Source: a virus. Taken from it: a DNA stretch of 22,230 bases. The stretch is taken from positions 1 to 22,230 of the IMG/VR virus record IMGVR_UViG_3300021437_000091, one strand, 5' to 3'. Positions 4,820 through 16,040 of the stretch are shown here, one piece after another. Each line of letters starts with the position of its first letter. The first letter of the stretch is position 1. A program made the position numbers and the translations under genes. The notes beneath the pieces were generated by a model, which was given only the letters and a program-made list of their open reading frames with translations, ran no database searches and had not been told where the DNA came from.

Positions 4820-4821
4820 CC

Positions 4822-5247
4822 ATGCCAAACCAGAAGAAGTGGCCCGCAGCGGTGAAAAGGCTCTTGGTGGCAGCGCTGGTGGCGCTGGGGATCAGGTCTG
4901 CGCACGCGTTCGACCGCGATCCGCTGGACGTCCCGCTGCGGCAGTACGCGTTCCTGCTGGCCGTGGCGCTGCTGGGCGGGCTGGTGTCCTGGTATGCCAA
5001 GGTCCGCTCGGGCACCGTGCGCGCCTGGCACATCAGCACGCTGGTGGGCGAGCTGGCGACCAGCGCCTTTGCGGGGCTGGTGGCGTTCTGGCTGTGCACC
5101 GCAGCCACCGTGCCGCCGATGGTGACCGCCGCGCTGGTGGGCGTGGCCGGGCACATGGGCACGCGCGCCATCGTGCTGCTGGAGCACTGGGCAGAGCGCC
5201 GGTTTGGCGGCCGGGACATGGCGCCTGAGCAGGAGCGGGGGCCATGA
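4822..5247 (+). CDS. LydA-type phage holin
   Basis: A 141-residue membrane protein just downstream of the tail protein stop. The hydrophobic segments near residues 41-58 (YAFLLAVALLGGLVSWY), 74-95 (VGELATSAFAGLVAFWLC) and 98-117 fit the three-helix LydA/holin-3 family, whose members contain GELATSAFAG and ALVGVAGHMG-like signatures. A short basic N-terminus precedes a possible additional hydrophobic stretch (residues 14-29). It would form inner-membrane lesions for lysis. No endolysin is seen next to it in this window, so the lysin must lie elsewhere or be absent. Confidence 0.85.
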   Translation: MPNQKKWPAAVKRLLVAALVALGIRSAHAFDRDPLDVPLRQYAFLLAVALLGGLVSWYAKVRSGTVRAWHISTLVGELATSAFAGLVAFWLCTAATVPPMVTAALVGVAGHMGTRAIVLLEHWAERRFGGRDMAPEQERGP

Positions 5248-5483
5248 ACGCGGCGGCCTGGGAGCACATGCACGACCGCGAAGAGGCGCAGGCCGTGGCG
5301 TGGATGGTGCGCGTCCCGGGGCGGCCCGAGGCGCGCTTCGTCAGCTTCGACCGCGGGCATGCGGAGCACTACGCGACGCGGATGCATGGGACGATTCATC
5401 CGCTCGGCGAGCTGCCGGTAAAGGCCGCTGCGGCTTCTAACGGCCCCGAAGCCGCCCCAGGCGCGCGGTCTGTGGACAACTGA
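5244..5483 (+). CDS. small phage protein of unknown function, end of late operon
   Basis: A 79-residue protein starting at ATG 5244 in an ATGA overlap with the holin stop, which supports it as a real coupled gene. The sequence is soluble and His/Arg/Glu-rich at the N-terminus (EHMHDREEAQAVAWMVRV), with no motif I recognise. It is the last plus-strand gene of the late operon. Its stop lies 6 bases before the first integron-type core site of the accessory array, so the original 3' end may have been altered by cassette insertion. Confidence 0.7.
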   Translation: MNAAAWEHMHDREEAQAVAWMVRVPGRPEARFVSFDRGHAEHYATRMHGTIHPLGELPVKAAAASNGPEAAPGARSVDN

Positions 5484-5498
5484 TCCGCGGGTTAGGCC
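5435..5498 (-). other. terminal half attC (site f) at the array/phage boundary
   Basis: Plus-strand GTTAGGCCCC at 5489-5498 is the left core box (GGGGCCTAAC on the minus strand) that closes the three-gene cassette: it is an exact complement of that cassette's start at 6493-6502. A possible partner, GTTAGAA (minus, 5441-5435), lies 61 bp away, the right distance for a short attC, but it fails the last position of GTTRRRY. The sequence between does not fold into the stem seen at the other sites. The internal part of this attC is probably lost or replaced by phage sequence. Confidence 0.55.
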
Positions 5499-5799
5499 CC
5501 AATGCCTTGCGCAGCGCATCTACGTGCTCGTCCATCAGCCCGTTCGGGTCCCATACGCCGCCGCGCACCACGGTCCACGCGATCACACAGCGTTGGGCAG
5601 CTCGGCGCCACTGCTCGACTTCGGCTTTCGCTTCGGCCAACGATTGAGCCAGCTTCGCCACATTCGCGGCTGCAGCATCGGAAACAACGGCGTCGGCCAT
5701 GATGCGGCGGCGCAGTCTTGCGTTCTCTCGGTGCAGGTGCAACAGCCTCTTCTGAGCGGCTTGCGCGCTTACCTTGACCATGATGTCTCCGTCAGCCAT
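5437..5799 (-). CDS. hypothetical coiled-coil cassette protein
   Basis: A 120-residue protein starting at ATG 5799, preceded by GGAGG with the TGA of the upstream gene overlapping the ribosome-binding region. Residues 12-70 are Ala/Glu/Lys/Arg-rich with heptad-like spacing and are probably a coiled coil. WDPNGLMDEHVDALRKALG then follows. The C-terminus is read through the left core box of site f, and the TAG lies in the putative right box, so the last ~20 residues may not be native. Third gene of a three-gene cassette; function unknown. Confidence 0.6.
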   Translation of the reverse strand: MADGDIMVKVSAQAAQKRLLHLHRENARLRRRIMADAVVSDAAAANVAKLAQSLAEAKAEVEQWRRAAQRCVIAWTVVRGGVWDPNGLMDEHVDALRKALGPNPRISCPQTARLGRLRGR

Positions 5800-5802
5800 G
5801 TG

Positions 5803-6129
5803 TCAACCTCCAATGCCCAGCTTGCGCTGAAGCAGTCGCGCGAACTCGTGATGCACTTCGTCTGCGTATGGGTCGGCGTTCGCCGCGTCCCACAGTTCTT
5901 CCACGTCCAGCGGGTCCAGCGGGTGCAGGGGCGTCGCGTAGTGCTCTGCCGCCTTGCTCCAGGTGTGCGCCTCGCGCTTCAGTGCCGCGTTCTCTGCCTC
6001 CAGCGCGGCCAGTCGCTCAGCGGTCAATGGAAACCACTTCTCCAGGCTGCTGTTCTCGCGCCACTGGCGGCCAATCTCGGCATCGTCCGGGCCAGCCTCG
6101 CCGTAGGCGTGCATGTTCGGGTCGTCCAT
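5803..6129 (-). CDS. hypothetical cassette protein
   Basis: A 108-residue acidic protein starting at ATG 6129 behind AAGGAAG. It begins MDDPNMHAYGEAG, has a Leu/Glu/Ala-rich helical stretch (LTAERLAALEAENAALKREA, residues 36-55) likely to form a coiled coil, and ends with a helical segment (FARLLQRKLG). Ser/Asp-rich N-termini like this occur in small phage early proteins, but I do not recognise a family. Second gene of the three-gene cassette; only 3 bases separate it from the next gene. Confidence 0.6.
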   Translation of the reverse strand: MDDPNMHAYGEAGPDDAEIGRQWRENSSLEKWFPLTAERLAALEAENAALKREAHTWSKAAEHYATPLHPLDPLDVEELWDAANADPYADEVHHEFARLLQRKLGIGG

Positions 6130-6146
6130 CTGTCAAGTCTTCCTTG

Positions 6147-6470
6147 TCAGTTCGCCAAGTCGGCGGCCACCAGCACAATCGCGCGCCTCGTGGCGGCTGT
6201 CGGGTCAGCGCCCCACGGTACGTCGCGCGCGGCCACGTCGCTGTCAAACGCCAGCGCGGTCACGGTCACGCACCCCTCGGTCACCATCTGCCCGATGTCC
6301 ATCTCCAGCGCCACGGCCAGCTCCAGCGCCTGGCCACTGTCGGTCAGCGGGTTCCATTGCCGAAAAGACCCCGGCCCATCGTCGCCGTGCGTCAGCAACA
6401 CGTCGTCCTCCAGCCAGTAGTAAATGCCGGCCGCCCGTGCAGCTCGTTCGAGCAGTGTCTTGTCGTCCAT
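6147..6470 (-). CDS. hypothetical phage-type protein (WNPLTDSG motif)
   Basis: A 107-residue protein starting at ATG 6470 behind GAGAAGG. The FRQWNPLTDSGQALELAVALEMDI stretch (residues about 37-60) resembles a recurrent motif in small phage early proteins (WNPL-D-GDALRLAVKL type), whose role is unknown. It is the first gene of the cassette that opens at GTTAGGC (6502-6496, minus). Its ATG is not in phase with the GTT crossover codon, unlike the other cassettes, and it has its own ribosome-binding site. Confidence 0.65.
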   Translation of the reverse strand: MDDKTLLERAARAAGIYYWLEDDVLLTHGDDGPGSFRQWNPLTDSGQALELAVALEMDIGQMVTEGCVTVTALAFDSDVAARDVPWGADPTAATRRAIVLVAADLAN

Positions 6471-6507
6471 AGTCCTTCTCGCTCCGGATACAGGGGCCTA
6501 ACCCGTC

Positions 6508-6515
6508 GCTCGAAC
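6508..6515. repeat. 8-bp target site duplication, left copy
   Basis: GCTCGAAC here is repeated exactly at 9124-9131, immediately outside the two ends of the ISL3-family element. Eight base pairs is the usual duplication length of the ISL3 family. Confidence 0.85.
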
Positions 6516-6540
6516 GGCTCTCCGGATTTCCATGTTGAAA
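6516..6540 (+). repeat. left terminal inverted repeat of the ISL3-family element
   Basis: GGCTCTCCGGATTTCC followed by ATGTTGAAA. The outer GGCTC and CGGATT blocks match the right end; the region between and inside them has diverged. It reads directly into the leader of the first passenger gene. Confidence 0.75.
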
Positions 6541-6592
6541 CGTCCATGATGGTTTATAGTCTGAAAACGGATTAACGTGTGGAAAGTAGACC

Positions 6593-6997
6593 ATGATTGA
6601 CCTGATGCAAGACCCCAAGCGCCCCTCCACTTTCATTGCCAACACGGGTGGCGAGACACCGGCTGAGCAGGTGCTGCGGAAGTTGGCGTGCTGGCTTGGA
6701 GCTGGTGGGTACAACGCCCCGACGGTTGATGCCGACGTGTTCCACGACAAGATCATCTGGGGCATAGGTGAGCTTGTTCAGGAGACGAACAGGCTTCAGC
6801 TTGAGGTTCATCGCTACCGAGACGCCTGGAACACCCAACGCCAGATCAACGAACTGATCAGACCCTCGTTCACGCACGAGGAGGTCATGAACGCGATGCA
6901 CGAGGCAGAAGTCCCGGACGGCCCCTTCAAGCTGATGCTGATGATCATGGACACCATCCGCGCCGACCGAGCTGCGGACATGGGCGACGGTGGTTGA
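6593..6997 (+). CDS. hypothetical passenger protein of the ISL3-family element
   Basis: A 134-residue protein starting at ATG 6593, with GGAAAG 7 bases upstream. The N-terminus reads MIDLMQDPKRPSTFIANTGG. The middle is helical (IGELVQETNRLQLEVHRYRDAW, near residues 57-78), and a second helical part includes THEEVMNAMHEAE. No known family recognised; the composition fits small phage or mobile-element proteins. First of three genes in tight order ahead of the transposase, so it probably shares its transcript. Confidence 0.65.
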   Translation: MIDLMQDPKRPSTFIANTGGETPAEQVLRKLACWLGAGGYNAPTVDADVFHDKIIWGIGELVQETNRLQLEVHRYRDAWNTQRQINELIRPSFTHEEVMNAMHEAEVPDGPFKLMLMIMDTIRADRAADMGDGG

Positions 6998-7036
6998 GCC
7001 ATGCCCTCGAACGACATTGAACCAAAGGAGATGACG

Positions 7037-7300
7037 ATGGAACGCGAGCAGGTTTGGGGCGTGGCAGTGATGGCGCCGAAGCAGAAGGAGGCCGCGCAGA
7101 AACACTGCTTCGGCGACTGCGGGAAGATCAGCATGGCAGGCGCCATCAACGACGAGGTGACCGGTGGCTTGTTCGTCTGCTGCCAGCCGACGTGCCCCTA
7201 CGAAGGGACCGTGATCCCGAACTACGGCGAGACGATGAGCTTTGGTCGCCCGCACACCGTGCACCTGCGCCTGCTGGAGCCGGTTGGAGAAGGCGCATGA
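7037..7300 (+). CDS. hypothetical Cys-rich passenger protein
   Basis: An 87-residue protein. I place the start at ATG 7037 rather than 7001 or 7031 because AAAGGAG (7024-7030) lies 6 bases before it. The sequence begins MEREQVWGVAVMAPKQKEAA and has Cys pairs HCFGDC and VCCQPTC about 28 residues apart, consistent with a small zinc-binding fold. The stop overlaps the next ATG as ATGA. No family recognised; function unknown. Confidence 0.6.
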   Translation: MEREQVWGVAVMAPKQKEAAQKHCFGDCGKISMAGAINDEVTGGLFVCCQPTCPYEGTVIPNYGETMSFGRPHTVHLRLLEPVGEGA

Positions 7301-7707
7301 GCGCCAGCAACTGGCGGCAGGGAGTGTGCGAGCGGGTGTCACTGCGAATCAACCGCGGGCTGAACGGCGGCGATTGCCCTGGTGCTGGCGCACTCGGCGA
7401 GTGCCCAGCCGTGTATGAGATGAGCCACGACGATGACGATGCAGGCGCCTCGTTCACGGCGGAGGTGTACCTGGCAACCCGTGCGCAACGCTTCACGGCG
7501 GCGACGCTGGCCGAGTGGATAGAAGCCTGCGGCGGCATTGAGCCTTGCATCAGCCATGTGATTCACGATCCTTACAACGGGACGGCTGATGGGGTCTGTT
7601 GCGACGGAGCGCGCCATTGGCGGGCGGAATTCCGGGTCGAACGCGACAAGCAGCCCACGTCTGCACCAGACGTGAGCCTGAATCGACAATCGGTGAATGA
7701 CCACTGA
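7297..7707 (+). CDS. hypothetical passenger protein ahead of the transposase
   Basis: A 136-residue protein starting at ATG 7297 in an ATGA overlap with the previous stop. It contains several Cys (GVCERV, GDCPGAGALGECPAVY, EACGGIEPC, GVCCDG) and an acidic DDDDAG run. The stop at 7707 overlaps the transposase start (7697) by 11 bases, so translation of the transposase is probably coupled to this gene. I do not recognise the family. Position and overlap argue for a regulatory or accessory role in the element, but that is inference only. Confidence 0.6.
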   Translation: MSASNWRQGVCERVSLRINRGLNGGDCPGAGALGECPAVYEMSHDDDDAGASFTAEVYLATRAQRFTAATLAEWIEACGGIEPCISHVIHDPYNGTADGVCCDGARHWRAEFRVERDKQPTSAPDVSLNRQSVNDH

Positions 7708-9112
7708 CATCCTCGACCTTCACGGGTGGACCGTCCTTGCAAAGCGCCTCGAAGACCGTGAGTACGAGCTTGAAGCTGAGTACACCGTCAAGCCCACCGC
7801 CTGCCAGAAGTGCGGCGTGCTGGATCGGCTGTACCGGCACGGCACCAAGGACACCATCTACCGTGACAGCCCCATCAGGGGCCACGCAACCCGCATCCTG
7901 GCCCGCGTGCAGCGGTACAAGTGCCGGGAGTGCGGCGAGACGTTCCTGCAGCCCCTGGCGGGCATCCAGGAGGACCGCCGCATGACTGCCAGGTGCGCCG
8001 AGTACATCAAGGAGCAGTGCCTCCGCGACACCTTCACCAGCATCGCTGACCACGTTGGTTGTGACGACAAGACCGTGCGCAACCTGGCAGGCGAGTACAT
8101 CGCCACGCTGGACGCCGCCTACAAGCCTTCCCTGCCGGCCTGGCTGGGCATCGACGAGACGCAGATCGACGGGAAGATGCGCTGCGTCATCACCGACATC
8201 GGCGGCCGGCGCCCCATCGAGATGCTGGCCGACCGGGACAAGGGCACCCTGACCACCTGGCTGCACCGGCACAAGGAGCGCAAGCACGTCGAGGGCGTGG
8301 CCATCGACATGTGGCGCCCGTACCGCGACGTAGCCGGCACGATCTTCCCGGGCGTGCCGGTCGTGATCGACAAGTTCCACGTCGTGCGAATGGCGAACTA
8401 CTGCATGGAGCGCGTGCGCATCCGGGTGGCCAAGACCCGCACCAAGGAGGTCCGGCGCGACTGGATGCGCTCCAAGGCCATCCTGAACAAGCGCGAGTCC
8501 ACCCTGACCGAGAAGCAGCGGTTCAACCTCGACATGTGGCTGGCCAACGAACCCGAGCTGGCCGACGCCTACCGGCTCAAGGAGAGCTTCTACGGCATCT
8601 ACGGCATGAAGAAGCCGCAGGCTCTGGCCGCCTATGACGCCTTCAAGGGCGACGTCCCCCAGGCGCTCAAGGCCGACTTCAAGGTGCTGCTGACCGCGAT
8701 GCGCAACTGGCGCCCGGAGATCACCGCCTACTTCGACCACCCGATCAGCAACGCCTACACCGAGGCACTGAATGGGGTGGCCAAGACGATCAACCGTGCT
8801 GGCCGGGGCTACAGCTTCGAGGTGCTGCGAGCGCGGCTGCTGTTCGGTTCCAAGCCCCGAATACAACCACCAAAGGAGACACCCATCATGACCCGTGGTG
8901 AACAAGCACTGCAGCGCGCCCAACTCCTCAGGGCAGGGAATGGACGGTGCCAGTCGTGCAGCGGAGCGTTTGAACCGGCCTCGCTGTTCGTCCACCTGAC
9001 CCCTGCCGTGGTCCCTGGCGAACATCGAAAGCCGATGCTTCTCTGCCAGAACTGCCACAGACGATTCCACACGGATGAACTCAGCGGTCATGCCTCAGAT
9101 TCCACACACTAA
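7697..9112 (+). CDS. ISL3-family transposase with C-terminal HNH-like zinc module
   Basis: A 471-residue protein. It has an N-terminal zinc ribbon (C36-x2-C39, C76-x2-C79), a helix-turn-helix near 110-132, then the DDE catalytic core with D153 in GIDETQID, D225 in VVIDKFHVVR and E356 in NAYTEALNG. This is the ISL3 (DDE_Tnp_ISL3) order. The transposase part ends near residue 385. Residues about 398-471 form a second module: CQSC (418-421), VHLTP (H433), LLCQNCHRRFH (C450, C453, H454, H458), an HNH-nuclease-like zinc knuckle in which the usual first D/H metal ligand before H433 is Val. ATG 8888 (M398) has its own AAAGGAGA 8-14 bases upstream, so the module may also be made separately. The protein excises and inserts the element. 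Confidence 0.88.
   Translation: MTTDILDLHGWTVLAKRLEDREYELEAEYTVKPTACQKCGVLDRLYRHGTKDTIYRDSPIRGHATRILARVQRYKCRECGETFLQPLAGIQEDRRMTARCAEYIKEQCLRDTFTSIADHVGCDDKTVRNLAGEYIATLDAAYKPSLPAWLGIDETQIDGKMRCVITDIGGRRPIEMLADRDKGTLTTWLHRHKERKHVEGVAIDMWRPYRDVAGTIFPGVPVVIDKFHVVRMANYCMERVRIRVAKTRTKEVRRDWMRSKAILNKRESTLTEKQRFNLDMWLANEPELADAYRLKESFYGIYGMKKPQALAAYDAFKGDVPQALKADFKVLLTAMRNWRPEITAYFDHPISNAYTEALNGVAKTINRAGRGYSFEVLRARLLFGSKPRIQPPKETPIMTRGEQALQRAQLLRAGNGRCQSCSGAFEPASLFVHLTPAVVPGEHRKPMLLCQNCHRRFHTDELSGHASDSTH
8888..9112 (+). CDS. possible internally initiated HNH-like protein, 74 aa
   Basis: In-frame ATG 8888 within the transposase gene is preceded by AAAGGAGA at 8872-8879, a strong ribosome-binding site. 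The product would be MTRGEQALQRAQLLRAGNG followed by the CQSC...LLCQNCHRRFH zinc module. HNH proteins often begin with an R-L-G/N-x-C-pattern before the first CxxC, so this looks like an originally free-standing gene that became joined in frame to the transposase. Whether it is translated on its own is unknown. Confidence 0.4.
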   Translation: MTRGEQALQRAQLLRAGNGRCQSCSGAFEPASLFVHLTPAVVPGEHRKPMLLCQNCHRRFHTDELSGHASDSTH

Positions 9113-9123
9113 TCCGTTGAGCC
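9099..9123 (-). repeat. right terminal inverted repeat of the ISL3-family element
   Basis: On the minus strand the end begins GGCTCAACGGATTAGTGTG. It shares GGCTC and CGGATT with the left end. The transposase stop codon (9110-9112) lies inside it. Confidence 0.75.
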
Positions 9124-9131
9124 GCTCGAAC
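9124..9131. repeat. 8-bp target site duplication, right copy
   Basis: Exact copy of GCTCGAAC at 6508-6515. It covers the end of the attC right arm and the start of the spacer to the right core box, so the insertion cut the attC between its stem and its crossover site. Confidence 0.85.
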
Positions 9132-9138
9132 GGACGGC

Positions 9139-9540
9139 CTACGGCCGCCGTTCAGCTCCCACGTTGGGCGGCTCGCTGTTCGCCAGTTTCAAAAGCACGG
9201 CCGCGTGGCAGGCGTCATCCTCGTATGGCCCAGGGCGCTTGCACCAGCAGGCCAGGTTCTTGCCGCGCAGCTCGGCACGGGCGGCAGCCACCAGCAGTGC
9301 GTTCTGTGGCGCGAATCCCAGGTAAATCTGCCAGGAGTGGCGGGCGTTTTTCGTCACCGTGCCGTAGGGGTTCGTCGCGCCCACCTTGAACGGGTTCCCC
9401 CACTTGGTCGTGCGATCAACCTTCACGGTGTTGGGTGGCATTTTCCAGCCCTTGGCGCGGCTTAGTTGCACGCGCTCCGGCTCCAGCCGCCCAACTGGCG
9501 CATCGAGCGGACCCTCAACGGCCCCGGTGTCCTGTTCCAT
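9139..9540 (-). CDS. DUF4326 domain protein (cassette gene using an attC-borne start)
   Basis: A 133-residue protein with the DUF4326 signature: RVQLSRAKGWKMPPNTVKV then DRTTKWGNPF, and a C-terminal GKNLACWCK with CHAAVLLKLAN. The family is common in phages and mobile DNA, and its activity is unknown. The ATG at 9540 lies in the hairpin loop of attC d, 6 nt after AGGAGG (9552-9547). Residues about 5-15 (TGAVEGPLDAPVG) are encoded by the attC right arm. The domain itself starts only at residue ~22, so the extension is recombination-derived. A native GTG could be at RVQL, preceded by CCGGAGCG. The stop lies in the loop of attC e. Confidence 0.85.
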   Translation of the reverse strand: MEQDTGAVEGPLDAPVGRLEPERVQLSRAKGWKMPPNTVKVDRTTKWGNPFKVGATNPYGTVTKNARHSWQIYLGFAPQNALLVAAARAELRGKNLACWCKRPGPYEDDACHAAVLLKLANSEPPNVGAERRP

Positions 9541-9591
9541 CTTCAACCTCCTGCGCGGGCCGTTGGGGTCCGCTCATGCTTATCGTTAGGT
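9489..9591 (-). repeat. attC site d, long form, 103 bp
   Basis: Minus strand: left box ACCTAAC (9591-9585), spacer, 19-bp arm GAGCGGACCCCAACGGCCC, a ~32-nt loop, right arm identical in reverse complement except for one extra unpaired base (A on the minus strand, T9515 on the plus strand), spacer, right box GTTGGGC (9495-9489). Both boxes fit RYYYAAC/GTTRRRY. A single extrahelical base in an otherwise perfect stem is characteristic of integron attC sites, where it selects the bottom strand. Closes the methyltransferase cassette. Confidence 0.9.
9538..9552 (-). promoter_or_regulatory. Shine-Dalgarno and ATG in the loop of attC d
   Basis: AGGAGG (9552-9547), 6-nt spacer, ATG (9540-9538), all inside the unpaired loop of the attC hairpin. 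The layout is the same as in attC b. It is the only ATG with a good ribosome-binding site for the DUF4326 gene and decides its start. Confidence 0.8.
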
Positions 9592-9592
9592 T

Positions 9593-10267
9593 TCACAACA
9601 GCCCCTCTTGCACAGGCTGTCTTGGTTCTTCAGGCGGCAGTAGCGTGCCCTGGGCCTGGGCGCGGGCTATGCGCTCGCAGGCGGCATCGAAGTAGCCGCG
9701 CTCGCGCTCAATGCCAGTGAACGCCAGCCCGAGCTGTACGCACGCCACGCCAGTGCTACCGCTGCCCATGAACGGGTCCAGCACCGTCGCGGGCCTGCCG
9801 GCTTGGTCCAGGCACCACGCCATCAACGGCACCGGCTTCTGCGTCGGGTGGTAGTGCTTCCCTTCGGTCGCCAGTTGCCCGTGGCTGTAGTCGAAAACGC
9901 GGTTCGGCTTGTCCAAGTTTGTCCAGGCGTGCTCGGCTTCGCTGCTGCTCCAGTTGCGCAGGATCTTGTTCCACGACAACCAGCACCGCGAAGGCTGCAA
10001 CAGGTAGAACTGTCCTCCCCACACCACGGCATGTTCGGCTTTTGTCAGCGCCAGTTCCACGCCGTCGGCCACTATGGCGCGGTCCCACTCCGGGGCGCCG
10101 CCGTAGTAGTGCTTCCCCCAGCCGCTTTTGCCAGGCCGGTGCAGGTGCTCATACACGCCATAGGGCGGGTCTGTCACCACTGCAGCAAAACGCGGCAGCA
10201 GCGGCAGCACCTCGCGGCAGTCGCCGTGCCACAGTTCCGCGTTGCCGATCACCACTTTCTCTGCCAT
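9593..10267 (-). CDS. orphan DNA methyltransferase (beta-class, N6-adenine or N4-cytosine)
   Basis: A 224-residue protein. ATG 10267 is preferred because GAAAGG lies 5-10 nt upstream; the adjacent ATG 10270 is too close. It has motif IV DPPYG at residues 33-37 (adenine/cytosine amino-methyltransferase active site) before motif I-type DPFMGSGSTG at 164-173 (S-adenosylmethionine binding), the beta-class order. HPTQKP (about 142) precedes it. No restriction endonuclease is adjacent, so it probably protects phage DNA or acts in regulation. It is a single-gene cassette. The stop TGA (9595-9593) overlaps the extended left box of attC d. The frame is open in phase from the GTT crossover codon to its own start. 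Confidence 0.92.
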   Translation of the reverse strand: MAEKVVIGNAELWHGDCREVLPLLPRFAAVVTDPPYGVYEHLHRPGKSGWGKHYYGGAPEWDRAIVADGVELALTKAEHAVVWGGQFYLLQPSRCWLSWNKILRNWSSSEAEHAWTNLDKPNRVFDYSHGQLATEGKHYHPTQKPVPLMAWCLDQAGRPATVLDPFMGSGSTGVACVQLGLAFTGIERERGYFDAACERIARAQAQGTLLPPEEPRQPVQEGLL

Positions 10268-10293
10268 CATCACCTTTCGTTGCGCCGAGTGAA

Positions 10294-10353
10294 ACCTAAC
10301 CTGTCCATCAAGCGGACCAGCCTTCGGCCGGCCGCTTATGTCCAACGTTGTGC
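10294..10353 (-). repeat. attC site c, short form, 60 bp
   Basis: Minus strand: left box GCACAAC (10353-10347), 9-nt spacer, AAGCGG-CCGGCC, loop GAA, GGCTGG-T-CCGCTT (one unpaired T, one G-T pair), 9-nt spacer, right box GTTAGGT (10300-10294). The right box fits GTTRRRY; the left box deviates at one position. The 60-bp size and shape match short attC sites such as that of aadA cassettes. It closes the 95/105-aa cassette; the TGA of the 105-aa gene is in its right arm. Confidence 0.9.
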
Positions 10354-10625
10354 CGCTCGCGCACTGCCACCGCCGTCACTTCGGCCCAGTCGGCGGTCAA
10401 GGCGGCGAGCATTTCGGTCAGCTCTTCGCGCGTGATGGTGACCATCACAAACGACTCGCCAGGGTGGCCGCCCGACTCATCGCCGCGCACGTCTGCTGGC
10501 CGAACAAGAAGTTGCACTGCGTTCGTCATCGTCACGCCGTCTTTGCATTCCCAAAGGCACATGCTGCAGGCGGCAATGGCAGGGTCAACGAACGAGTCAT
10601 CTCCCAGGGTTGGTGTGGCGCTCAC
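10308..10625 (-). CDS. hypothetical cassette protein, 105 aa
   Basis: Starts at GTG 10625 in a GTGA overlap with the stop of the upstream gene. Begins (M)SATPTLGDDSFVDPAI, has a Cys cluster CSMCLWEC near residues 20-27, then VTITREELTEMLAALTADW. The last ~15 residues (HNVGHKRPAEGWSA) are encoded by the left arm, loop and right arm of attC c, and the stop is in the attC, as often seen for cassette genes. An alternative start is ATG at MTNAVQLL. Function unknown. Confidence 0.65.
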   Translation of the reverse strand: MSATPTLGDDSFVDPAIAACSMCLWECKDGVTMTNAVQLLVRPADVRGDESGGHPGESFVMVTITREELTEMLAALTADWAEVTAVAVRERHNVGHKRPAEGWSA

Positions 10626-10909
10626 GTCAGTGCCTCCCCATGCACAAGCACCGCGCGGCAGAACGCGCGCAGTTCGTCGGCCGTGCACAGTAGCGAGTCA
10701 ACACCCATCGGCGCACACTCGCCGATCAGTTCGTCAATGGCCGTAGTGCCAATGCCGTCCTCGGCCAGTGCAAGCGCCTCGGCCTCGTGCCACGGCATGC
10801 CCGTCTGCTCGTGCAACAGCTCGGCGCGCGCCAGCCATCCGCGCTTCGGAACCAGCGGCACAACTGACGGTTCGAGCGGACCCTCAACGGCCCGGCTACT
10901 TTGTCCCAT
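10622..10909 (-). CDS. hypothetical cassette protein, 95 aa (attC-borne start)
   Basis: ATG 10909 lies in the loop of attC b, 6 nt after AGGAGG (10921-10916). Residues about 4-18 (SSRAVEGPLEPSVVP) are encoded by the attC right arm and crossover site, followed by cassette-borne sequence LVPKRGWLARAELLHEQTG. The core is MPWHEAEALALAEDGIGTTAIDEL in two parts, followed by a Cys-containing C-terminal helix region. GTG within the GTTGTGCC crossover box could be an internal native start. The start overlaps the end of the DUF551 gene by 14 nt. Function unknown. Confidence 0.65.
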   Translation of the reverse strand: MGQSSRAVEGPLEPSVVPLVPKRGWLARAELLHEQTGMPWHEAEALALAEDGIGTTAIDELIGECAPMGVDSLLCTADELRAFCRAVLVHGEALT

Positions 10910-10959
10910 CTTCCACCTCCTGTGCGGGCCGTTGGGGTCCGCTCAACCTAGCGTTAGGG
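10858..10959 (-). repeat. attC site b, long form, 102 bp
   Basis: Minus strand: left box CCCTAAC (10959-10953), spacer, 19-bp arm GAGCGGACCCCAACGGCCC (10944-10926), ~32-nt loop, right arm 10893-10874 perfectly complementary apart from one extra base (T10884 on the plus strand), spacer, right box GTTGTGC (10864-10858). Both boxes keep AAC and GTT but each misses the consensus at one or two positions. The stem is identical to that of attC d, so the two sites share ancestry. Closes the XF1762-DUF551 cassette. Confidence 0.88.
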
Positions 10960-11210
10960 CGCTTGAGCACTAGCACGGGTGCTGGTGGCGACGGCTGCCA
11001 GAACCACGCATCTACCGCCAGCCCCGGAACGCTGAAACTGGCAAGCCCCGCTCCGTCTTCGCCGCCGCTCCTGTACCGCCCGCCCAATACTCGACCGTTC
11101 AGGTAGCCCATCGGCAGCAGCTGGTCAACGCGAACCACGAAAAGCACATCCTGGCCGTCCCTTGGCAAGCGTTCGGCGCAGTCAATCCAATCTCCGAGAT
11201 CGTCGTTCAT
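10896..11210 (-). CDS. DUF551-like protein
   Basis: A 104-residue protein. ATG 11210 is chosen because it makes an ATGA overlap with the XF1762 stop. The sequence DWIDCAERLPRDGQDVLFVV near the N-terminus and WFWQPSPPAP downstream follow the DUF551 pattern (W-S-xx-RLPxxGxxVL ... W-xPLPxxP), a small domain common in phage early regions, function unknown. The last ~20 residues (ARLSGPQRPAQEVEDGTK) are encoded by attC b's left arm and loop, hence not family-conserved. Second gene of its cassette. Confidence 0.8.
   Translation of the reverse strand: MNDDLGDWIDCAERLPRDGQDVLFVVRVDQLLPMGYLNGRVLGGRYRSGGEDGAGLASFSVPGLAVDAWFWQPSPPAPVLVLKRPNARLSGPQRPAQEVEDGTK
10907..10921 (-). promoter_or_regulatory. 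Shine-Dalgarno and ATG in the loop of attC b
   Basis: AGGAGG (10921-10916), 6-nt spacer, ATG (10909-10907) in the hairpin loop. The DUF551 reading frame terminates (TAG 10898-10896) 9 nt beyond this ATG, so termination and initiation occur in the same loop. Confidence 0.8.
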
Positions 11211-11785
11211 CCAACCCATCTCCATTTGCCGCCCACAAGGTCATCGCCTACGGGTTCAACAGTGCGTCCCGGCCGGCTGTGCCACATCGCGGCGCTTCCG
11301 CCAGCGTCCTCTTTGTCAAGCCTGAATCCAGCGGCGCGCAAGCTGGCGCCGCCTTCCTCGGGCAGCGTGTAGGTGTAGATCGGCGTGTAACCCATCGCTC
11401 GCGCGGCCTTGCGCGCAGCGCCGTAGAGCATGCTGCAAGCGTTGCGCGTGCCATCGGCACACAGGCGGGTCACTTCGGCGGCCTTGCCGTTGTCCAGTCG
11501 CGGGGCTACGGGTCGGCCAACAATCGCCACGCCTACCAGCGCCCAGGCTTCTCCATTCGCAGCCCGCGTGCAGGCTTCCACGCCCACCGCGAACTTGTGC
11601 CCCACCACCGGGCGGCTGTGGCGGTGCCGCTGGCGCACAAACTCGTTCGCGGTCTTCAGGTCACACGGCACCACACGCAGCAGCGGCGCGCCACCGTCCG
11701 CGCGCTCCGGCACCAGCGCCCTAACACGCAGGTCGAGGCGAGGCCCAACGGCCTCGCGCACCTGTGGGTGTGGCTGCTGGGTCAT
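11207..11785 (-). CDS. XF1762-family protein (GNAT-like fold suspected)
   Basis: A 192-residue protein with the family hallmarks: FVRQRHRHSRPVVGHKFAVG, then VGVAIVGRPVAPRLDNG, VTRLCADGTRNACSMLYGAA, and YTLPEEGGASLRAAGF. XF1762-family proteins are frequent in phages; the AAxxxAxxxGYxxIxTYT pattern resembles acetyltransferases, but no activity is established. The ATG 11785 lies in the loop of attC a, in an ATGA overlap with the stop of the 114-aa gene. Residues 1-36 are attC- and cassette-leader-encoded; the conserved domain begins near LRVVPCDLKTAN. First gene of its cassette. Confidence 0.88.
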   Translation of the reverse strand: MTQQPHPQVREAVGPRLDLRVRALVPERADGGAPLLRVVPCDLKTANEFVRQRHRHSRPVVGHKFAVGVEACTRAANGEAWALVGVAIVGRPVAPRLDNGKAAEVTRLCADGTRNACSMLYGAARKAARAMGYTPIYTYTLPEEGGASLRAAGFRLDKEDAGGSAAMWHSRPGRTVEPVGDDLVGGKWRWVG

Positions 11786-11818
11786 GGCCGTTGGTCCCGC
11801 CTCACCAGCACGTTGGGC
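11719..11818 (-). repeat. attC site a, long form, 100 bp
   Basis: Minus strand: left box GCCCAAC (11818-11812), spacer, arm GAGGCGGGACCAACGGCC, ~32-nt loop, arm that pairs with one unpaired base and two mismatches, spacer, right box GTTAGGG (11725-11719). The left box fits RYYYAAC; the right box misses the final Y. The stem shares its inner AACGGCC/GGCCGTT with attC b and d. Its left flank is identical over 17 nt (GCGAGCCGCCCAACGTG) to attC e. It is the first site of the array in gene direction; no matching cassette start is found upstream. Confidence 0.82.
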
Positions 11819-12126
11819 GGCTCGCGACGCACCCAGACCGGGCGCGGCGTCGTGCAGTCGCATGTAGCCAGGGCCATCGCGCACGACTCGCAGAAGTTCA
11901 GCAACTGGCGCGCGGCCACGCGGCCCGCTTCAGTCACCGTAAAAATGGGGTCGCCGCCGGAAAGTGGGTGCCCGTCGCGGCGCGTCATCAGCCCCTCGGC
12001 CACCAACGCCTGGCAGTGCGGGTAATCCGTGCTGCCGGGGCCGGTCACGAAGTGGTTGCGGTATTCGCGGTTGCTTCGGCCCAGGCCCAGTGCGTGCCGC
12101 AGGATGTCTTGCTGTTCGATATTCAT
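11782..12126 (-). CDS. hypothetical phage early protein, 114 aa
   Basis: Starts at ATG 12126, 2 nt after the stop of the ParB-like gene. Sequence EQQDILRHALGLGRSNREYR, then NHFVTGPGSTDYPHCQALV and GLMTRRDGHPLSGGDPIFTVTEAGR resembles a small protein I have seen repeatedly in betaproteobacterial prophage early regions (function unknown; winged-helix-like C-terminal pattern). CESCAMALATCDC could bind metal. The last ~15 residues and TGA are encoded by attC a's left arm and loop, so this gene sits at the joint between phage operon and cassette array: either the first cassette gene or a phage gene with an attC joined to its 3' end. Confidence 0.78.
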   Translation of the reverse strand: MNIEQQDILRHALGLGRSNREYRNHFVTGPGSTDYPHCQALVAEGLMTRRDGHPLSGGDPIFTVTEAGRVAARQLLNFCESCAMALATCDCTTPRPVWVRREPPNVLVRRDQRP

Positions 12127-12128
12127 GG

Positions 12129-13090
12129 TCAGTAGGTGCCTTCCTGCGCAAACGGGTGCGGGCGGGCCTCTTCTTCGACCATCTCGCCGGCGCAGCCGGC
12201 TTCGTCCGTCTGTTCTTCGCCGGCGCCGGCCGGCGATGCGCCGCCCGCTTGTGACGGGTCAAGCGCGGCCGATGCCTCGTCATCTTCCGCGCCCGCGCCA
12301 GCGGATGCTGTGGCGCGGTCGGCGCGCCAGGCCGCCATCACCGCGTTCGCGTCGATGCCGTAGTGGTTGGCCAGGGCCAGCAGCGGGCCAGGCTTCGTGT
12401 GCAGGCTGTAGGTGTGCACGCGCACGTCGTCGACGATGGCGCAGTCCATCACCAGGGCGGTGAGCTGCACCACGTCCATGTGGTCGATCTGGCGCTTCAG
12501 CGCCTCGACATCCTTCAGGCCGTGCAACAGGGCGAGGAAGCTCTTGTCGTGCCAGTCCACGCCCGATAGCGCCGCGGCGGCCACCAGGCGCAAGTCGAAG
12601 GCGTCGCGGGCCCGTTGCGCGGCCACCTGGCGCACGTGCATCAGCAGCGCGGTGCGGCGCGAGGTTTCCTCTTTCGCCCTGGCTTCCACGGCCGCGCGTT
12701 TCCTCGCGTCCGCCTCTTGCTGCGCCTTGTGGGCATCACCTTGGGGCAGGTCTTCCTTCTTCGCCAGGCCGGCGGCCACCAGGTCGGCGCGGGCGACGGC
12801 CTGCACGGTCTGGCCGGTGCGCTGGTCCTGGATCAGCACCACCTGCGGCGCCGGCGCGCCGGCCTTCTTGGCCTGCTTCTTGAGCACCGCCTTTACCTTG
12901 CTCAGCTCGAGGTAGGCGCCCTTCACGGCGCCGTGCGCGCTGAGCGACGCGCGGGCCTTGTTGCCGGTGATGACCACCTTGCCGGCGGCCTGCAGCGCCG
13001 CGGCCTCGCGCGCCAGGTGGCCTGACGCTTGGCGTCGTCGGGGTCGATGGCCGGGCCGGCGCGGCGGAAGTCGCGGTTCTTGGCGGGCAT
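12129..13090 (-). pseudogene. ParB/RepB-like protein lacking its N-terminal half, with a frameshift
   Basis: ATG 13090 with AGGAG 8 nt upstream, right after the kinase stop, opens MPAKNRDFRRAGPAIDPDDA, but this frame soon leaves the coding phase. From about 13020 the -1/+2 frame continues as HLAREAAALQAAGKVVITGN and runs to TGA at 12131-12129. One missing base near 13015-13025 explains it. The downstream part has the C-terminal half of phage/plasmid ParB proteins: VVLIQDQRTGQTVQAV, and LLALANHYGIDANAVMAAW. The N-terminal ParB nuclease/HTH domains are absent, giving about 320 residues if repaired. It may be a decayed gene, a sequencing error, or a natural C-domain-only protein. Confidence 0.7.
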
Positions 13091-13092
13091 GA

Positions 13093-13650
13093 TCAGGCTC
13101 TCCTCAGGCTGTCGACCAGGCGGTCCACCTGGTCGAACAGGGTGGCTTGGCTGCCGAAGTTCAGCAGCTCGGTGGTGACGGTCAGATGGTCGCTGTGCGA
13201 CTCACTGACATGCGGGCGCGCCTGGGGCGTGATGTCGCGCACCACGCGCACCAGCACGCCGCCGCGGGCCTGCAGCCATTCGGCCTCGTTGGGGAAGCGC
13301 ACATCGCTGACGACGATGTTCTCCGTCTGCAGGTGCGGCGCCGCCAGGCGCAGGCTGGCCACGCGCAACCAGAAGTCGGGCGCCAGGCTGCGCCCCCACT
13401 CGGTGCCCAGCGTCTGCGCGAGCTGGCGGTAGCTGAAGCCCAGCGCTGTGGGCTGTTCTTTCAGGGCGCGCTCGACCATCCAGGCGCCGTCGATGTCGGC
13501 ATCGGCGAACAGGGCGCCGATCATGTTGACGATGGGGTCGGCCATCGCGATCTCGACGAAGGCGAACTCGCGCTCCAGGTACGCGGCCACGGTGGACTTG
13601 CCGGCGCCGGCGCGGCCGGTCAGGCCGACGAGCAGGGGCGCGGTGGTCAT
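13093..13650 (-). CDS. deoxynucleoside monophosphate kinase (phage type)
   Basis: A 185-residue P-loop kinase. The Walker A GLTGRAGAGKST is at residues 8-19. FVEIAMADPIVNMIGALF and FSYRQLAQTLGTEWGR follow, with a VSDVRFPNEAEWL strand characteristic of phage dNMP kinases (T4 gene 1-like group). The family phosphorylates dNMPs to dNDPs to support phage DNA synthesis in the cytoplasm. The start ATG 13650 overlaps the upstream stop as ATGA. It is in the leftward early operon, in line with a replication-supply role. Confidence 0.88.
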   Translation of the reverse strand: MTTAPLLVGLTGRAGAGKSTVAAYLEREFAFVEIAMADPIVNMIGALFADADIDGAWMVERALKEQPTALGFSYRQLAQTLGTEWGRSLAPDFWLRVASLRLAAPHLQTENIVVSDVRFPNEAEWLQARGGVLVRVVRDITPQARPHVSESHSDHLTVTTELLNFGSQATLFDQVDRLVDSLRRA

Positions 13651-14048
13651 GCCGCCAGCGCCTGCGGGGTGGCCGCGGTGGCCGTGGTAACCGTTGCAGC
13701 GGGGGGCGCCGGCCACCAGGTGTGCAGCGCCTTGGCCAGCAGCGCGGTGCGGAAGGCGTCGCCCGCGTGGTACAGGCCGCGCAGCGTGTAGAACACCAGG
13801 CCTGGGTGGTCGCGCGCCTCCAGGCGCTTCATGTCCAGCTCGATCTCGCTGGCCAGGTGGCGCACGTCGAAGATCACCCACGCCAGGCCCTCGTGCCGGG
13901 TGGCGCGCAGGAAGTGGTGCAGGTAGCCGTCGACGGCCACCGGGTGCAGGCCGATGGCGCTGCCGTCGCGGAACATCACTTCGCAGCGCTGGGCCTGCAC
14001 GGTGTAGCGGTCGCTGTGCGCGATGGCGCGTGTGTCTGGGAGGAACAT
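13647..14048 (-). CDS. hypothetical early protein, 133 aa
   Basis: ATG 14048 with TAGGAG about 9 nt upstream; the longer open frame extending to 14894 in the same phase is not used because it covers three other genes. The product begins MFLPDTRAIAHSDRYTVQAQ and contains FLRATRHEGLAWVIFDVRHL and LVFYTLRGLYHAGDAFRTAL, then an Ala/Thr/Pro tail. No family recognised. The stop overlaps the kinase start by 4 bases. Confidence 0.72.
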   Translation of the reverse strand: MFLPDTRAIAHSDRYTVQAQRCEVMFRDGSAIGLHPVAVDGYLHHFLRATRHEGLAWVIFDVRHLASEIELDMKRLEARDHPGLVFYTLRGLYHAGDAFRTALLAKALHTWWPAPPAATVTTATAATPQALAA

Positions 14049-14058
14049 GCTCGGGCTC

Positions 14059-14487
14059 CTATTGGGTGACGGGCGGGGATTCGAGATCCGCGGCCAGCGC
14101 GATGGCGCGCACGCGGCACAGGACGTTGACGGGGTCGCCGCGGTGGTGGCCGGGCGCCAGGCCTTCGCCGCTGACGACGACTTCCACGCCGGCGCGCAGG
14201 CGCTGGGCCTTGCTGTGCGCGGCCAGCGCGGTGGTGGCCGGGCAGCCCTGGTCAGGGCAGTGCAGCGTGGCCAGGATGTGGCGTGCCTCGGGGTGGCGCT
14301 GCAGGTGCTGCGCCACCAGCACCTGCAGGTGGGTGGTGCCGTCGGTGCTGCTGTAGACATGCGCGTCCTCGAGCAGCAGGCCCCAGACGGCCAGGCGGAT
14401 GGGCAGCTCGGGCGCCGGGGGCGGCGCTTGCAGCTCGGGCAGCAGGGCGGCCTGGGCCGGGCCGGCGCTGTGGGTGGTGGCGTGCAT
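14059..14487 (-). CDS. hypothetical early protein, 142 aa
   Basis: Begins MHATTHSAGPAQAALLPELQ, with LPIRLAVWGLLLEDAHVYSS and THLQVLVAQHLQRHPEARHI, then a GVEVVVSGEGLAPG strand. LHCPDQGCPA has a Cys pair. The pattern hints at an OB-fold-like or single-stranded-DNA-binding-like small protein, but I cannot name a family. The stop TAG overlaps the ribosome-binding site of the next gene, fitting coupling in the operon. Confidence 0.68.
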   Translation of the reverse strand: MHATTHSAGPAQAALLPELQAPPPAPELPIRLAVWGLLLEDAHVYSSTDGTTHLQVLVAQHLQRHPEARHILATLHCPDQGCPATTALAAHSKAQRLRAGVEVVVSGEGLAPGHHRGDPVNVLCRVRAIALAADLESPPVTQ

Positions 14488-14500
14488 GGCGTGGCGCGGC

Positions 14501-14764
14501 TCAGCCCAAACGCAGCAGGCCCAGGCGCACGGCGGCCCACAGGGCCACGCCGGCCAGCGCCACGCCCGCCAGCAGGCCGTAGCCCAGGCCCACGAGCCAG
14601 CCGCGGGCGCGGGCGCCGCGCTGGCCGGTGTCGTAGCCGTCGCTCCAGGCGTTGTGCACGGCCTGGGCCAGGCGCTCGTCGGGGTGGCGCGGTTGCACGG
14701 GTGCAGGCGTCCGCACGGCAGTGACGCGGCGGCCGCTGATCAGGCGCAGGTCGGGGCCGCTCAT
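14501..14764 (-). CDS. small single-pass membrane protein, 87 aa
   Basis: A basic, soluble N-terminus (MSGPDLRLISGRRVTAV) is followed by one C-terminal hydrophobic segment at about residues 55-84 (WLVGLGYGLLAGVALAGVAL). The ATG overlaps the previous stop in ATGA. Likely an inner-membrane early protein; superinfection or host-takeover roles are possible but there is no motif to support one. Confidence 0.68.
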   Translation of the reverse strand: MSGPDLRLISGRRVTAVRTPAPVQPRHPDERLAQAVHNAWSDGYDTGQRGARARGWLVGLGYGLLAGVALAGVALWAAVRLGLLRLG

Positions 14765-14979
14765 TGCAGGGTCCAGCCGATGAGGCCGGCGAAGAAGGCC
14801 AGCAGGTACAGCAGCCAGGGGTGGGGCACTTCGACGGGCTCGTGCTCCCAGCCGTCGCGGATGTGCAGCGGCGCCGGGGCGGTGCGCTGGTCATCGCACA
14901 GGCTGTCGGTCAGGCAGTCGGCACCGGCGCCGGCCGGGTGCGCCATGTGGGTGGCGATGGCGTCGTCCAGGGCGCTCAT
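14761..14979 (-). CDS. small membrane-anchored protein, 72 aa
   Basis: Begins MSALDDAIATHMAHPAGAGA and ends with a hydrophobic helix WLLYLLAFFAGLIGWTLQ (residues 55-72), probably C-terminally anchored. It is embedded between two 4-base ATGA-type overlaps with its neighbours, which supports translation. Two Cys in DCLTDSLCDD. Function unknown. Confidence 0.68.
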   Translation of the reverse strand: MSALDDAIATHMAHPAGAGADCLTDSLCDDQRTAPAPLHIRDGWEHEPVEVPHPWLLYLLAFFAGLIGWTLQ

Positions 14980-15209
14980 GACAGCACCCCAGGGCGCAGG
15001 TCGGCGCCGAAGATGCAGTAGACGCGGCCGGTGACGGTCCAGTTGGCGGTGCCGCCGTTGGGGATGCGCGGCGTGGCGTCCAGCGGGCCGCCGGCGTCGA
15101 GCCAGTCTTCCTTGCGCACGCGGCCGGCTTTCCAGCCGATCAAGGTGCTGGGGTTGAAGTCAGCGCCGCCGGATGTGACCTGCGCGCCGGTCTGGTGGAT
15201 CAAGAGCAT
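14976..15209 (-). CDS. hypothetical early protein, 77 aa
   Basis: ATG 15209 is chosen over the longer start at 15293 because AGGAGG lies 5 nt upstream of it, and the region above is a structured divergent intergenic stretch. The product begins MLLIHQTGAQVTSGGADFNP and ends NWTVTGRVYCIFGADLRPG. No family recognised. The stop overlaps the next gene by 4 bases. Confidence 0.65.
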   Translation of the reverse strand: MLLIHQTGAQVTSGGADFNPSTLIGWKAGRVRKEDWLDAGGPLDATPRIPNGGTANWTVTGRVYCIFGADLRPGVLS

Positions 15210-15229
15210 GGGGCCCTCCTGGGGATGGC

Positions 15230-15291
15230 GGGCGCCCCTGTCGGTCCTACGATGGTTGGCTCTGACCTCAACCATTGCCGGAGGGGCGCCC
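15230..15291. promoter_or_regulatory. nested inverted repeats in a divergent intergenic region
   Basis: Outer arms GGGCGCCCCT (15230-15239) and AGGGGCGCCC (15282-15291) are perfect complements. Inner arms ATGGTTG (15252-15258) and CAACCAT (15269-15275) are also perfect. The right outer arm contains the GGAGG ribosome-binding region of the plus-strand gene at 15292 and ends at its ATG. A transcript from upstream would hide that site in a hairpin; alternatively the repeats are operator DNA for both directions. Confidence 0.6.
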
Positions 15292-15537
15292 ATGACGATT
15301 GCGTTGCTACTTGTTCATTCCACGCGCAGCGGGCCTGTCTTCATCGGGCAAAGCGCGGACGGCCGGTTCCATGTCGTGTGGAAGGGGGAGTCGCTGGGGA
15401 ACTACGAAACGGTGGGGCTGGCGGTTGACGATGCGGCCGGCGGCCACACGGACGCACCGTCTGACGGCACGGACTTGGGCTCGCTCGAGCTCAGTGGCGA
15501 CCCGAGCGACTGGTCGACGGTCAAGGCAGCCCAGTAG
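15292..15537 (+). CDS. small conserved phage protein, 81 aa
   Basis: Starts at ATG 15292 with GGAGG 7 nt upstream. The sequence RFHVVWKGESLGNYETVGLA, then VDDAAGGHTDAPSDGTDLG and LSGDPSDW, matches a short protein I recall from betaproteobacterial phages, where it is found near the repressor region; function unknown. It is the only plus-strand gene in the leftward operon and overlaps the 3' end of the minus-strand gene by 136 bp, so the two transcripts are antisense to each other there. Confidence 0.7.
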   Translation: MTIALLLVHSTRSGPVFIGQSADGRFHVVWKGESLGNYETVGLAVDDAAGGHTDAPSDGTDLGSLELSGDPSDWSTVKAAQ

Positions 15538-16040
15538 CCGGGGTCAAGCGTTTCGCGCACGTCGTGTGCGGACTTGGCTGACAAGCGCAGGTACATCGGC
15601 TCGCCGTCGGGCCGGGTGAAAGAAATGCCCTGGTCACCTGTCGCCGGGTCGGGCGGCAAGGTGCCGCGCCAGTCCACCGGCACGAAGATGGCGGGGATGC
15701 GGGTACCGACTCGCGGCCCGGTGCAGTCCGGGCATGCAATGCGCCTGGGCGAGTAGGGCTCCCTGATGAATCCGAGCCCACCGCATGCCGCGCACCGCTG
15801 TGCGGCGGCCTCGAACAGCCAACCCGACCGGCTGCAGATCGCATCGACGGCAGCGGCCCTAGTCTGCACGAAATCCCCGCCGCGCATGTCGGTGCAGCGC
15901 CGTGAGGGCATGCCAGTCACCGGGTCGACGGGTGCGACCGGGTGGTCGCAATACAGCACCACGCGCGGCGGGGTGCTGGAAGCGTGCCGGCACTCGGCGC
16001 ACTTGGGCGCGGCGCGGCTGGGGTGTTGGTCGGGTGGCAT
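15402..16040 (-). CDS. zinc-finger-like early protein, 212 aa
   Basis: Starts at ATG 16040. The N-terminal Cys set CAEC (14-17), C31 and C49 and a second set CAACGGLGF plus IACPDC (a CxxCxGxG / CxxC pattern as in DnaJ or zinc ribbons) suggest two zinc-binding sites. The central part (IPAIFVPVDWRGTLPPDP) and SFTRPDGEPMYLRLSAKSAH are typical protein-like sequence. The last ~45 residues lie antisense to the plus gene at 15292. First gene of the leftward operon, facing away from the repressor region. Function unknown; DNA or RNA binding is possible. Confidence 0.72.
   Translation of the reverse strand: MPPDQHPSRAAPKCAECRHASSTPPRVVLYCDHPVAPVDPVTGMPSRRCTDMRGGDFVQTRAAAVDAICSRSGWLFEAAAQRCAACGGLGFIREPYSPRRIACPDCTGPRVGTRIPAIFVPVDWRGTLPPDPATGDQGISFTRPDGEPMYLRLSAKSAHDVRETLDPGYWAALTVDQSLGSPLSSSEPKSVPSDGASVWPPAASSTASPTVS

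What the first reader, a model, noticed from the sequence alone, without database searches (positions are those of the whole stretch)
9489..11818. attC hairpin loops act as translation relays between cassettes
In the three long attC sites (a, b, d) the loop carries the start codon of the next cassette's first gene. In b and d it is preceded by AGGAGG with the same 6-nt spacing; in a it is an ATGA stop/start overlap. In a and b the upstream gene reads through the left arm and stops in the same loop. The new protein reads through the right arm (AVEGPLE, AVEGPLD, EAVGPRL) and crossover site into the cassette. If real, any cassette recombined next to such a site gains an initiation signal without a gene-borne start. 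I know of no named mechanism for this.
Basis: partly seen in the sequence, partly recalled or inferred. Interest (0 to 1): 0.9.

Follow-up and report, generated by a model that had tools for sequence, protein, structure and literature searches.

The report
Phage integrons with back-to-front cassettes
A family of bacterial viruses appears to carry gene-swapping platforms (integrons) in which each swappable gene sits behind its recombination hairpin instead of in front of it, often with the protein's start signal inside the hairpin loop, so one structure seems to serve both for moving a gene and for switching on its translation.

Summary
The region is an integron cassette array in a phage contig; three long attC hairpins carry start codons in their loops as described. 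It is not a local accident: in viral arrays 46 of 92 distinct long attC sites have Shine-Dalgarno+ATG in the loop on the gene strand and 0 on the other. In a set fetched by integrase, not by attC, it is 9 of 12 and 0. By attC polarity the genes are inverted relative to bacterial cassettes (viral 82 gene-strand, 0 opposite, 59 undecided of 141; bacterial 2, 43, 47 of 92). Near-identical cassettes share their 5' attC, not the 3' one, so the start signal belongs to the gene's own cassette and travels with it. Related contigs encode an integron integrase (a 23-member viral clade) at the 3' end of the array in gene direction; the window lacks it. Two gene pairs with different attCs keep the loop start in frame, so some exchange at the right box remains possible. 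Counter-examples: phages TJE1 and Rctr41k have ordinary polarity. Nothing was tested experimentally.

The parts
9119..9172 (-). fifth attC, short type, its right box lost where an ISL3-family element begins; left box 9163-9172 matches the right box of the 9489-9591 site over 10 nt (read from sequence)
6493..6565 (-). right half of a further attC on the other side of the insertion (right box GTTAGGCCCC at 6493-6502)
5491..5500 (-). last cassette boundary box GGGGCCTAAC, matches the right box at 6493-6502; array end, no intI in the window
11782..12126 (-). phage gene upstream of the array (phrog_13561), stops in the loop of site a
11207..11785 (-). Mom-like DNA modification protein gene, starts in the loop of site a
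10896..11225 (-). DUF551-like gene (below Pfam cut-off), stops in the loop of site b
10622..10909 (-). gene of unknown function, starts in the loop of site b
10308..10625 (-). second gene of the same cassette; GTGA overlap with the one before (read from sequence)
9593..10267 (-). N6/N4 DNA methyltransferase gene, starts after the short site c
9139..9540 (-). DUF4326 gene, starts in the loop of site d
5437..6470 (-). last, multi-gene cassette (ORFs 6147-6470, 5803-6129, 5437-5799)
6566..9118 (+). ISL3-family element (terminal inverted repeat AACGGATTA.., transposase 7697-9112) that interrupts the array

Best explanation
The window is the intI-less end of a phage-borne integron. In this class each cassette is attC followed by gene, in gene direction: the recombining attC strand (canonical bottom strand) is the coding strand. 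Cassettes are read as one operon from the phage's early genes towards attI and, where present, intI. Long attC sites carry Shine-Dalgarno and ATG in the hairpin loop, so a ribosome can load in the single-stranded loop, or re-initiate there after ending the upstream gene, and melts the right arm while translating it as an N-terminal extension. Shown by sequence: sites, polarity, cassette unit, in-frame loop starts, and the place and direction of intI in relatives. Inferred: that the loop starts are used, that IntI acts on these sites, that transcription comes from early phage promoters, and that cargo such as methylases serves counter-defence.
For: Cassette-flanking boxes match over up to 10 nt in the window and in contigs G001, G002, G003, G007. 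Gene orientation relative to attC polarity, same code for both collections: viral 82 sense/0 anti/59 undecided of 141 cassettes, bacterial 2/43/47 of 92; by contig 46/0/17 of 63 and 1/27/6 of 34. Unit: near-identical cassettes share the 5' attC. Loop starts: 46 of 92 distinct long sites on the gene strand, 0 on the other; 41 of 46 open for at least 40 codons past the right box, against 18 of 46 for the other permitted frame; AUG mean unpaired probability 0.67, outer arm 0.04. Set fetched by integrase: 9 of 12, 0 on the other strand, shuffled mean 1.1. intI at the 3' end of the array in the gene direction, box GGGGCCTAAC 54 nt before its ATG. A clade of 23 viral IntIs, support 99/98, with six catalytic positions kept in 23 of 23. 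Phage genes in the window, G001, G017, L472, L480.
Against: No expression or recombination data. 46 of 92 long sites have no SD-ATG in the loop, and short sites nearly never do (viral 2 of 73). Phages TJE1 and Rctr41k carry canonical-polarity cassettes, so inversion is not universal in phages. The ORF-length measure gave 10 viral cassettes as anti, against 89 sense and 42 undecided. Some N-termini could start internally. The site finder was tuned on the window and L005.
Confidence: 0.75

Rival explanations
1. One reading: the attC belongs to the upstream cassette and gives an initiation signal to any cassette that recombines behind it.
For: Two homologous gene pairs (L179/L328, 83% identical; L092/L330, 90%) have different attCs with the change at the right box, and both members keep the loop ATG in the same frame. 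The only reading frame never used is the one with forced stops (frames 0 and 2: 26 and 20 of 46), so attC exchange would often stay open.
Against: Breakpoints of near-identical cassettes lie at the left box; the 5' attC moves with the gene. Polarity by the extra base agrees, as does the position of attI/intI.
Confidence: 0.1
2. The loop starts are not used; real starts lie inside the cassette bodies, and loops look like starts because they are purine-rich and arms are open in two of three frames.
For: Internal ATG/GTG codons exist in some genes (for example before PPNTV in the DUF4326 gene). Half of long sites lack SD-ATG.
Against: Shuffled loops give 5.9 of 57 against 27 observed. The used frame stays open for at least 40 codons in 41 of 46 against 18 of 46 for the other permitted frame. 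Different attCs before the same gene both place ATG in its frame.
Confidence: 0.15
3. An ordinary cluster of bacterial cassettes picked up by a phage, with nothing special about orientation.
For: Phage CALINs are published (PMC9892861), and TJE1 and Rctr41k here have ordinary polarity.
Against: In this sample 0 of 141 viral cassettes were called in the bacterial direction by the codon model, while 43 of 92 bacterial ones were; a separate viral IntI clade accompanies such arrays.
Confidence: 0.05
4. The inversion was selected for recombination, not translation: it puts the recombining strand on the coding strand, which in genes co-directional with replication is the lagging-strand template; loop starts are a by-product of compact phage genomes.
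For: Inverting the V. cholerae array raises cassette excision strongly (PMC11023631, abstract).
Against: Direction of replication through these arrays is unknown; it does not by itself explain the SD-ATG excess in loops. It is compatible with the best explanation rather than exclusive.
Confidence: 0.25

Closest known systems
Integron fragments and CALINs in phage genomes (Qi et al. 2023, PMC9892861; abstract, section 3.4 and find passages read)
   Same: attC clusters without intI in phages; methyltransferase cargo; phage attC sites shown there to recombine with IntI1 on the bottom strand.
   Different: The parts read report no inversion of genes relative to attC and no start codons in attC ('start codon' 0 and 'loop' 0 occurrences); its TJE1 array has ordinary polarity by my finder.
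ORF-11 coupling in attI1 and short ORFs inside attC with termination-reinitiation (review PMC8876359, passages read; primary papers not read)
   Same: Translation signals inside integron recombination sites help express neighbouring cassette genes.
   Different: There the ORF in the site is a short separate peptide that helps a neighbouring gene; here the gene itself begins in its own attC loop and the attC is at the gene's 5' end.
Reverse integrons of Treponema (PMC7691350, passages read)
   Same: intI and cassette genes point the same way.
   Different: There the cassettes lie downstream of intI and the gene stops in the R'' box, i.e. ordinary gene-attC cassettes; here the array lies on the 5' side of intI and the cassettes are attC-gene.
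Class 1 and chromosomal integrons of Xanthomonadales and Burkholderiales
   Same: IntI family TIGR02249, attC fold, attC array on the 5' side of intI.
   Different: Cassette genes read away from intI (13 anti, 7 sense of 20 cassettes next to bacterial IntI; beyond a score of 8: 11 anti, 0 sense) against 1 and 19 of 20 (0 and 11 beyond 8) next to viral IntI, near-duplicate contigs included.

Membership tests
Integron cassette array / CALIN | two or more attC sites with R boxes that match across each cassette | tested here: met
   4 complete sites in the window, box match 10 of 10 for all three cassettes between them
Integron cassette array / CALIN | attC sites recognised by IntegronFinder or HattCI models | not testable with these tools
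   models not available; own finder used, Markov control 0-2 hits per 22 kb
Complete integron | intI of family TIGR02249 in the same element | tested here: not met
   none in the window nor in six other viral records; present in related contigs G013 and G011 over the cut-off
Bacterial-type gene cassette | gene lies 5' of its attC, on the strand opposite the recombining one | tested here: not met
   window genes lie on the strand with the extra base in the 3' arm; viral/bacterial contrast; cassette unit
Reverse integron | intI and cassettes in the same direction, array downstream of intI | tested here: not met
   array on the 5' side of intI in 22 of 22 viral IntI loci that have sites
Recombination-active attC | integration into attI by IntI through the bottom strand | not testable with these tools
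   needs an assay
attI1 ORF-11 type translational enhancer | short ORF in attI whose stop is supplied by the cassette | tested here: not met
   starts lie in attC and run into the gene

The most novel reading that the evidence does not exclude
There is a virus-specific lineage of integrons, with its own integrase clade, whose cassettes are built back to front: attC first, gene second, start codon in the attC loop. The recombination hairpin doubles as the ribosome-loading module, new cassettes enter at the far end of a phage operon next to intI, and attC modules can occasionally be exchanged at the right box without loss of reading frame. Such phages would hold a shuffling store of counter-defence genes that a host integron would insert in the silent direction.
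Probability: 0.5. Interest if true: 0.92.

Novelty: new variant of a known kind. Interest (0 to 1): 0.82.

Why it matters
Integron cassettes are taken to be gene-then-attC, expressed from a promoter beside intI. A phage class with attC-then-gene cassettes, its own integrases and translation starts inside the recombination hairpin would change what counts as a cassette, explain how integrons can work without a Pc promoter, and give phages a shuffling store of genes such as DNA methylases. It also makes testable how one hairpin can serve DNA recombination and ribosome loading, and gives a new way to find phage counter-defence genes.

Tried and rejected
A first orientation count with the polarity forced on both strands and by longest open frame was ambiguous (225 of 326 undecided) and was replaced by a strict polarity rule and a codon model. 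A first cassette-homology count held self matches and was replaced; two near-duplicate loci, L109 and L180, were left out. My early impression that the right box GTT is always read in frame 0 (7 of 7 by eye) was wrong: 26 frame 0, 20 frame 2. The '+1 frame' control is partly trivial, because ATGA starts make TGA; the comparison with the other permitted frame is the fair one. From the count 21 overlapping loci were left out (17 refetches of the same contigs and 4 window copies), leaving 314 viral sources including the window; 120 bacterial loci were examined. From the counts 33 overlapping or near-duplicate loci were left out. From the IntI tree I dropped near-identical, short or weak rows (L464, L478, L480, L494, L489, L493, L496, L499, and bacterial fragments L524-L530, L533-L535, three of which came back as outgroup). 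L486, L490, L495, L497, L498 and the L491/L492 pair fall outside the 23-member clade. The finder found no sites in Shewanella phage M16-3 or Polaribacter phage P12002L, so their polarity is untested. Rfam and tRNA scans of the window gave nothing. PADLOC named only the methylase among 8 proteins. Literature searches whose listings showed no report of inverted phage cassettes or of starts in attC loops: (open-licence PMC papers only, no preprints).
Full report
What is in the window. The window is a 22,230-base virus record. Its left part has phage tail genes on the plus strand. Between about 5.4 and 12.1 kb lie genes on the minus strand separated by attC-like hairpins at 11719-11818, 10858-10959, 10294-10353 and 9489-9591, plus a fifth at 9119-9172, cut by an ISL3-family element. 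The boxes at the two ends of each of the three cassettes between the four complete sites match over 10 of 10 nt, the mark of units that have existed as circles. First-order Markov copies of the window gave 0-2 site-like hits per 22 kb on both strands. The cargo includes a DUF4326 protein, an N6/N4 DNA methylase and a Mom-like protein.

The observation. The reading frames run through the right arm and right box into the genes, and in a and b the upstream gene stops in the loop. Sites b and d are 84% identical over 106 nt and so are not independent.

It recurs. A stem pattern found a second contig (L005; whole record G001) with the same layout. In viral arrays 27 of 57 distinct long sites have Shine-Dalgarno-ATG in the loop on the gene strand and 0 on the other strand; shuffled loops give a mean of 5.9 and a maximum of 12. 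Short sites have 2 of 73. Bacterial long sites have 3 of 13 against 1 of 13 on the other strand. With the viral loci fetched up to then, it is 46 of 92 against 0, from 48 loci; 41 of 46 frames stay open for at least 40 codons past the right box, against 18 of 46 for the other frame that the stem permits; the AUG is more than half unpaired in 33 of 46 predicted folds. In loci fetched by integrase rather than by attC, 9 of 12 new long sites have it, 0 on the other strand, and 9 of 9 run past the box.

Which way round. An attC has a polarity, set by an extra unpaired base in one arm. With the same strict rule and the same codon model, viral arrays had the gene on the strand with the extra base in the 3' arm in 82 cassettes, on the other strand in 0, undecided in 59 (141 cassettes, 68 arrays). 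Bacterial genomes, found with one of the same patterns, gave 2, 43 and 47 (92 cassettes, 34 arrays). By contig: 46, 0, 17 of 63 viral, and 1, 27, 6 of 34 bacterial. A cruder ORF-length call gives 89, 10, 42 viral and 5, 70, 17 bacterial. So in this sample the phage cassettes are inverted relative to bacterial ones.

What moves. Two cassettes of one phage (L332, 98.7% identical over 448 nt) begin to match inside the left box, run through attC and gene, and part just after the next left box. Over 15 homologous cassette pairs the 5' attC alone is alike in 6, the 3' attC alone in 2, neither in 7; the three pairs above 95% identity all share the 5' attC. The unit is therefore attC plus gene in gene direction, and the start codon in the loop belongs to the gene's own cassette. 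A remainder survives: L179/L328 and L092/L330 are homologous genes with different attCs, the change lies at the right box, and in all four the loop ATG is in the gene's frame. The neighbour does provide ends: of 86 upstream genes called on the gene strand, 37 stop before the left box, 32 in it, 4 in the spacer, 12 in the hairpin and 1 beyond.

The integrase. None of the first 7 viral records examined, the window included, has an integron integrase. Of 34 further records 2 have one over the curated cut-off. In G013 and G011 it lies at the 3' end of the array and points the same way; G017 holds an N-terminal remnant in the same place. In G013 a box GGGGCCTAAC, matching the last cassette's right box, lies 54 nt before the intI start: a candidate attI. 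A search with this protein gave 43 viral loci. In a tree of 56 rows, 23 viral integrases form one clade (99/98) next to one that holds 18 bacterial integrases and IntI1 (83/90); six catalytic positions are kept in 23 of 23. Of 22 viral integrase loci with sites, all have them on the 5' side of intI, 21 in the same polarity; 12 of 13 bacterial loci with sites show the same platform (one of them, L341, also has a site on the 3' side), and one (L353) has its only site on the 3' side. Cassette genes beside viral IntI: 19 sense, 1 anti of 20 (11 and 0 beyond a score of 8); beside bacterial IntI: 7 sense, 13 anti of 20 (0 and 11 beyond 8); near-duplicate contigs are included. So the platform is the ordinary one and only the genes within the cassettes are turned round.

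Are these phages? Tail genes were found in the window, G017, L472 and L480, a major head protein in G001, and a primase in G013; one protein each from L474 and G001 had no match. A phage-type tyrosine integrase gene follows intI in L472.

Counter-evidence. Tetrasphaera phage TJE1 and virus Rctr41k have genes in the bacterial direction (annotation; sites), so inversion is not a rule for all phage arrays. The patterns select CGG stems and a 7-nt spacer. No experiment was possible. The direction of replication and the promoters are unknown.

How it most likely works. Early phage transcription runs through the array towards attI/intI. The coding strand is the strand that IntI would fold and cut. 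In mRNA the same hairpin forms, with Shine-Dalgarno and AUG mostly unpaired in the loop; ribosomes load there or re-initiate after ending the upstream gene in the left box or loop, and read the right arm as the start of the protein. Cassettes keep their own start wherever they go. The use of the starts and the activity of IntI are inferred.

Comparison with what is in print. Phage CALINs and their recombination with IntI1 are published (PMC9892861; abstract, section 3.4 and find passages read). Coupling from ORF-11 and short ORFs in attC are reviewed in PMC8876359 (passages). Reverse integrons have intI and cassettes in one direction, but with the array downstream of intI and ordinary cassettes (PMC7691350, passages). 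I saw no report of inverted cassettes in phages or of genes starting in attC loops in the listings of searches, which cover open-licence papers only.

Noticed in passing
window 6566-9118: ISL3-family element with inverted ends and other ORFs inside; its transposase has a C-terminal stretch weakly like an HNH endonuclease (phrog_3106, E 0.0055). No target duplication was seen; the flanks look like halves of two different attC sites.
   Followed up: partly
window 5803-6129 (-) and L005:14-325 (+): The last, multi-gene cassette of the window has a close homologue next to the array of G001, so such genes are shared between these phages.
   Followed up: no
L536 (Virus Rctr41k) 4680-9434: An intI-like gene is followed, downstream and in the same direction, by an array with ordinary-polarity attC sites: a reverse-integron-like layout in a virus record.
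   Followed up: partly
L331 (G003:1-18000), sites 640-5024 (-) and 12560-15912 (+): One phage contig carries two attC arrays on opposite strands.
   Followed up: no
L472 11187-12278: A phage-type tyrosine integrase gene lies directly after intI, suggesting that the integron sits in the phage's integration module.
   Followed up: no
viral attC sites, for example L328 and L332: Two size classes: long sites (often with a loop start) and short sites with a 3-4 nt loop and no start, mixed within the same arrays.
   Followed up: partly
L005:1633-1734 and window 10858-10959: Different upstream proteins end in nearly the same tail (..SGPQRPA..EDGT..), because the tail is encoded by the next cassette's attC left arm.
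   Followed up: partly
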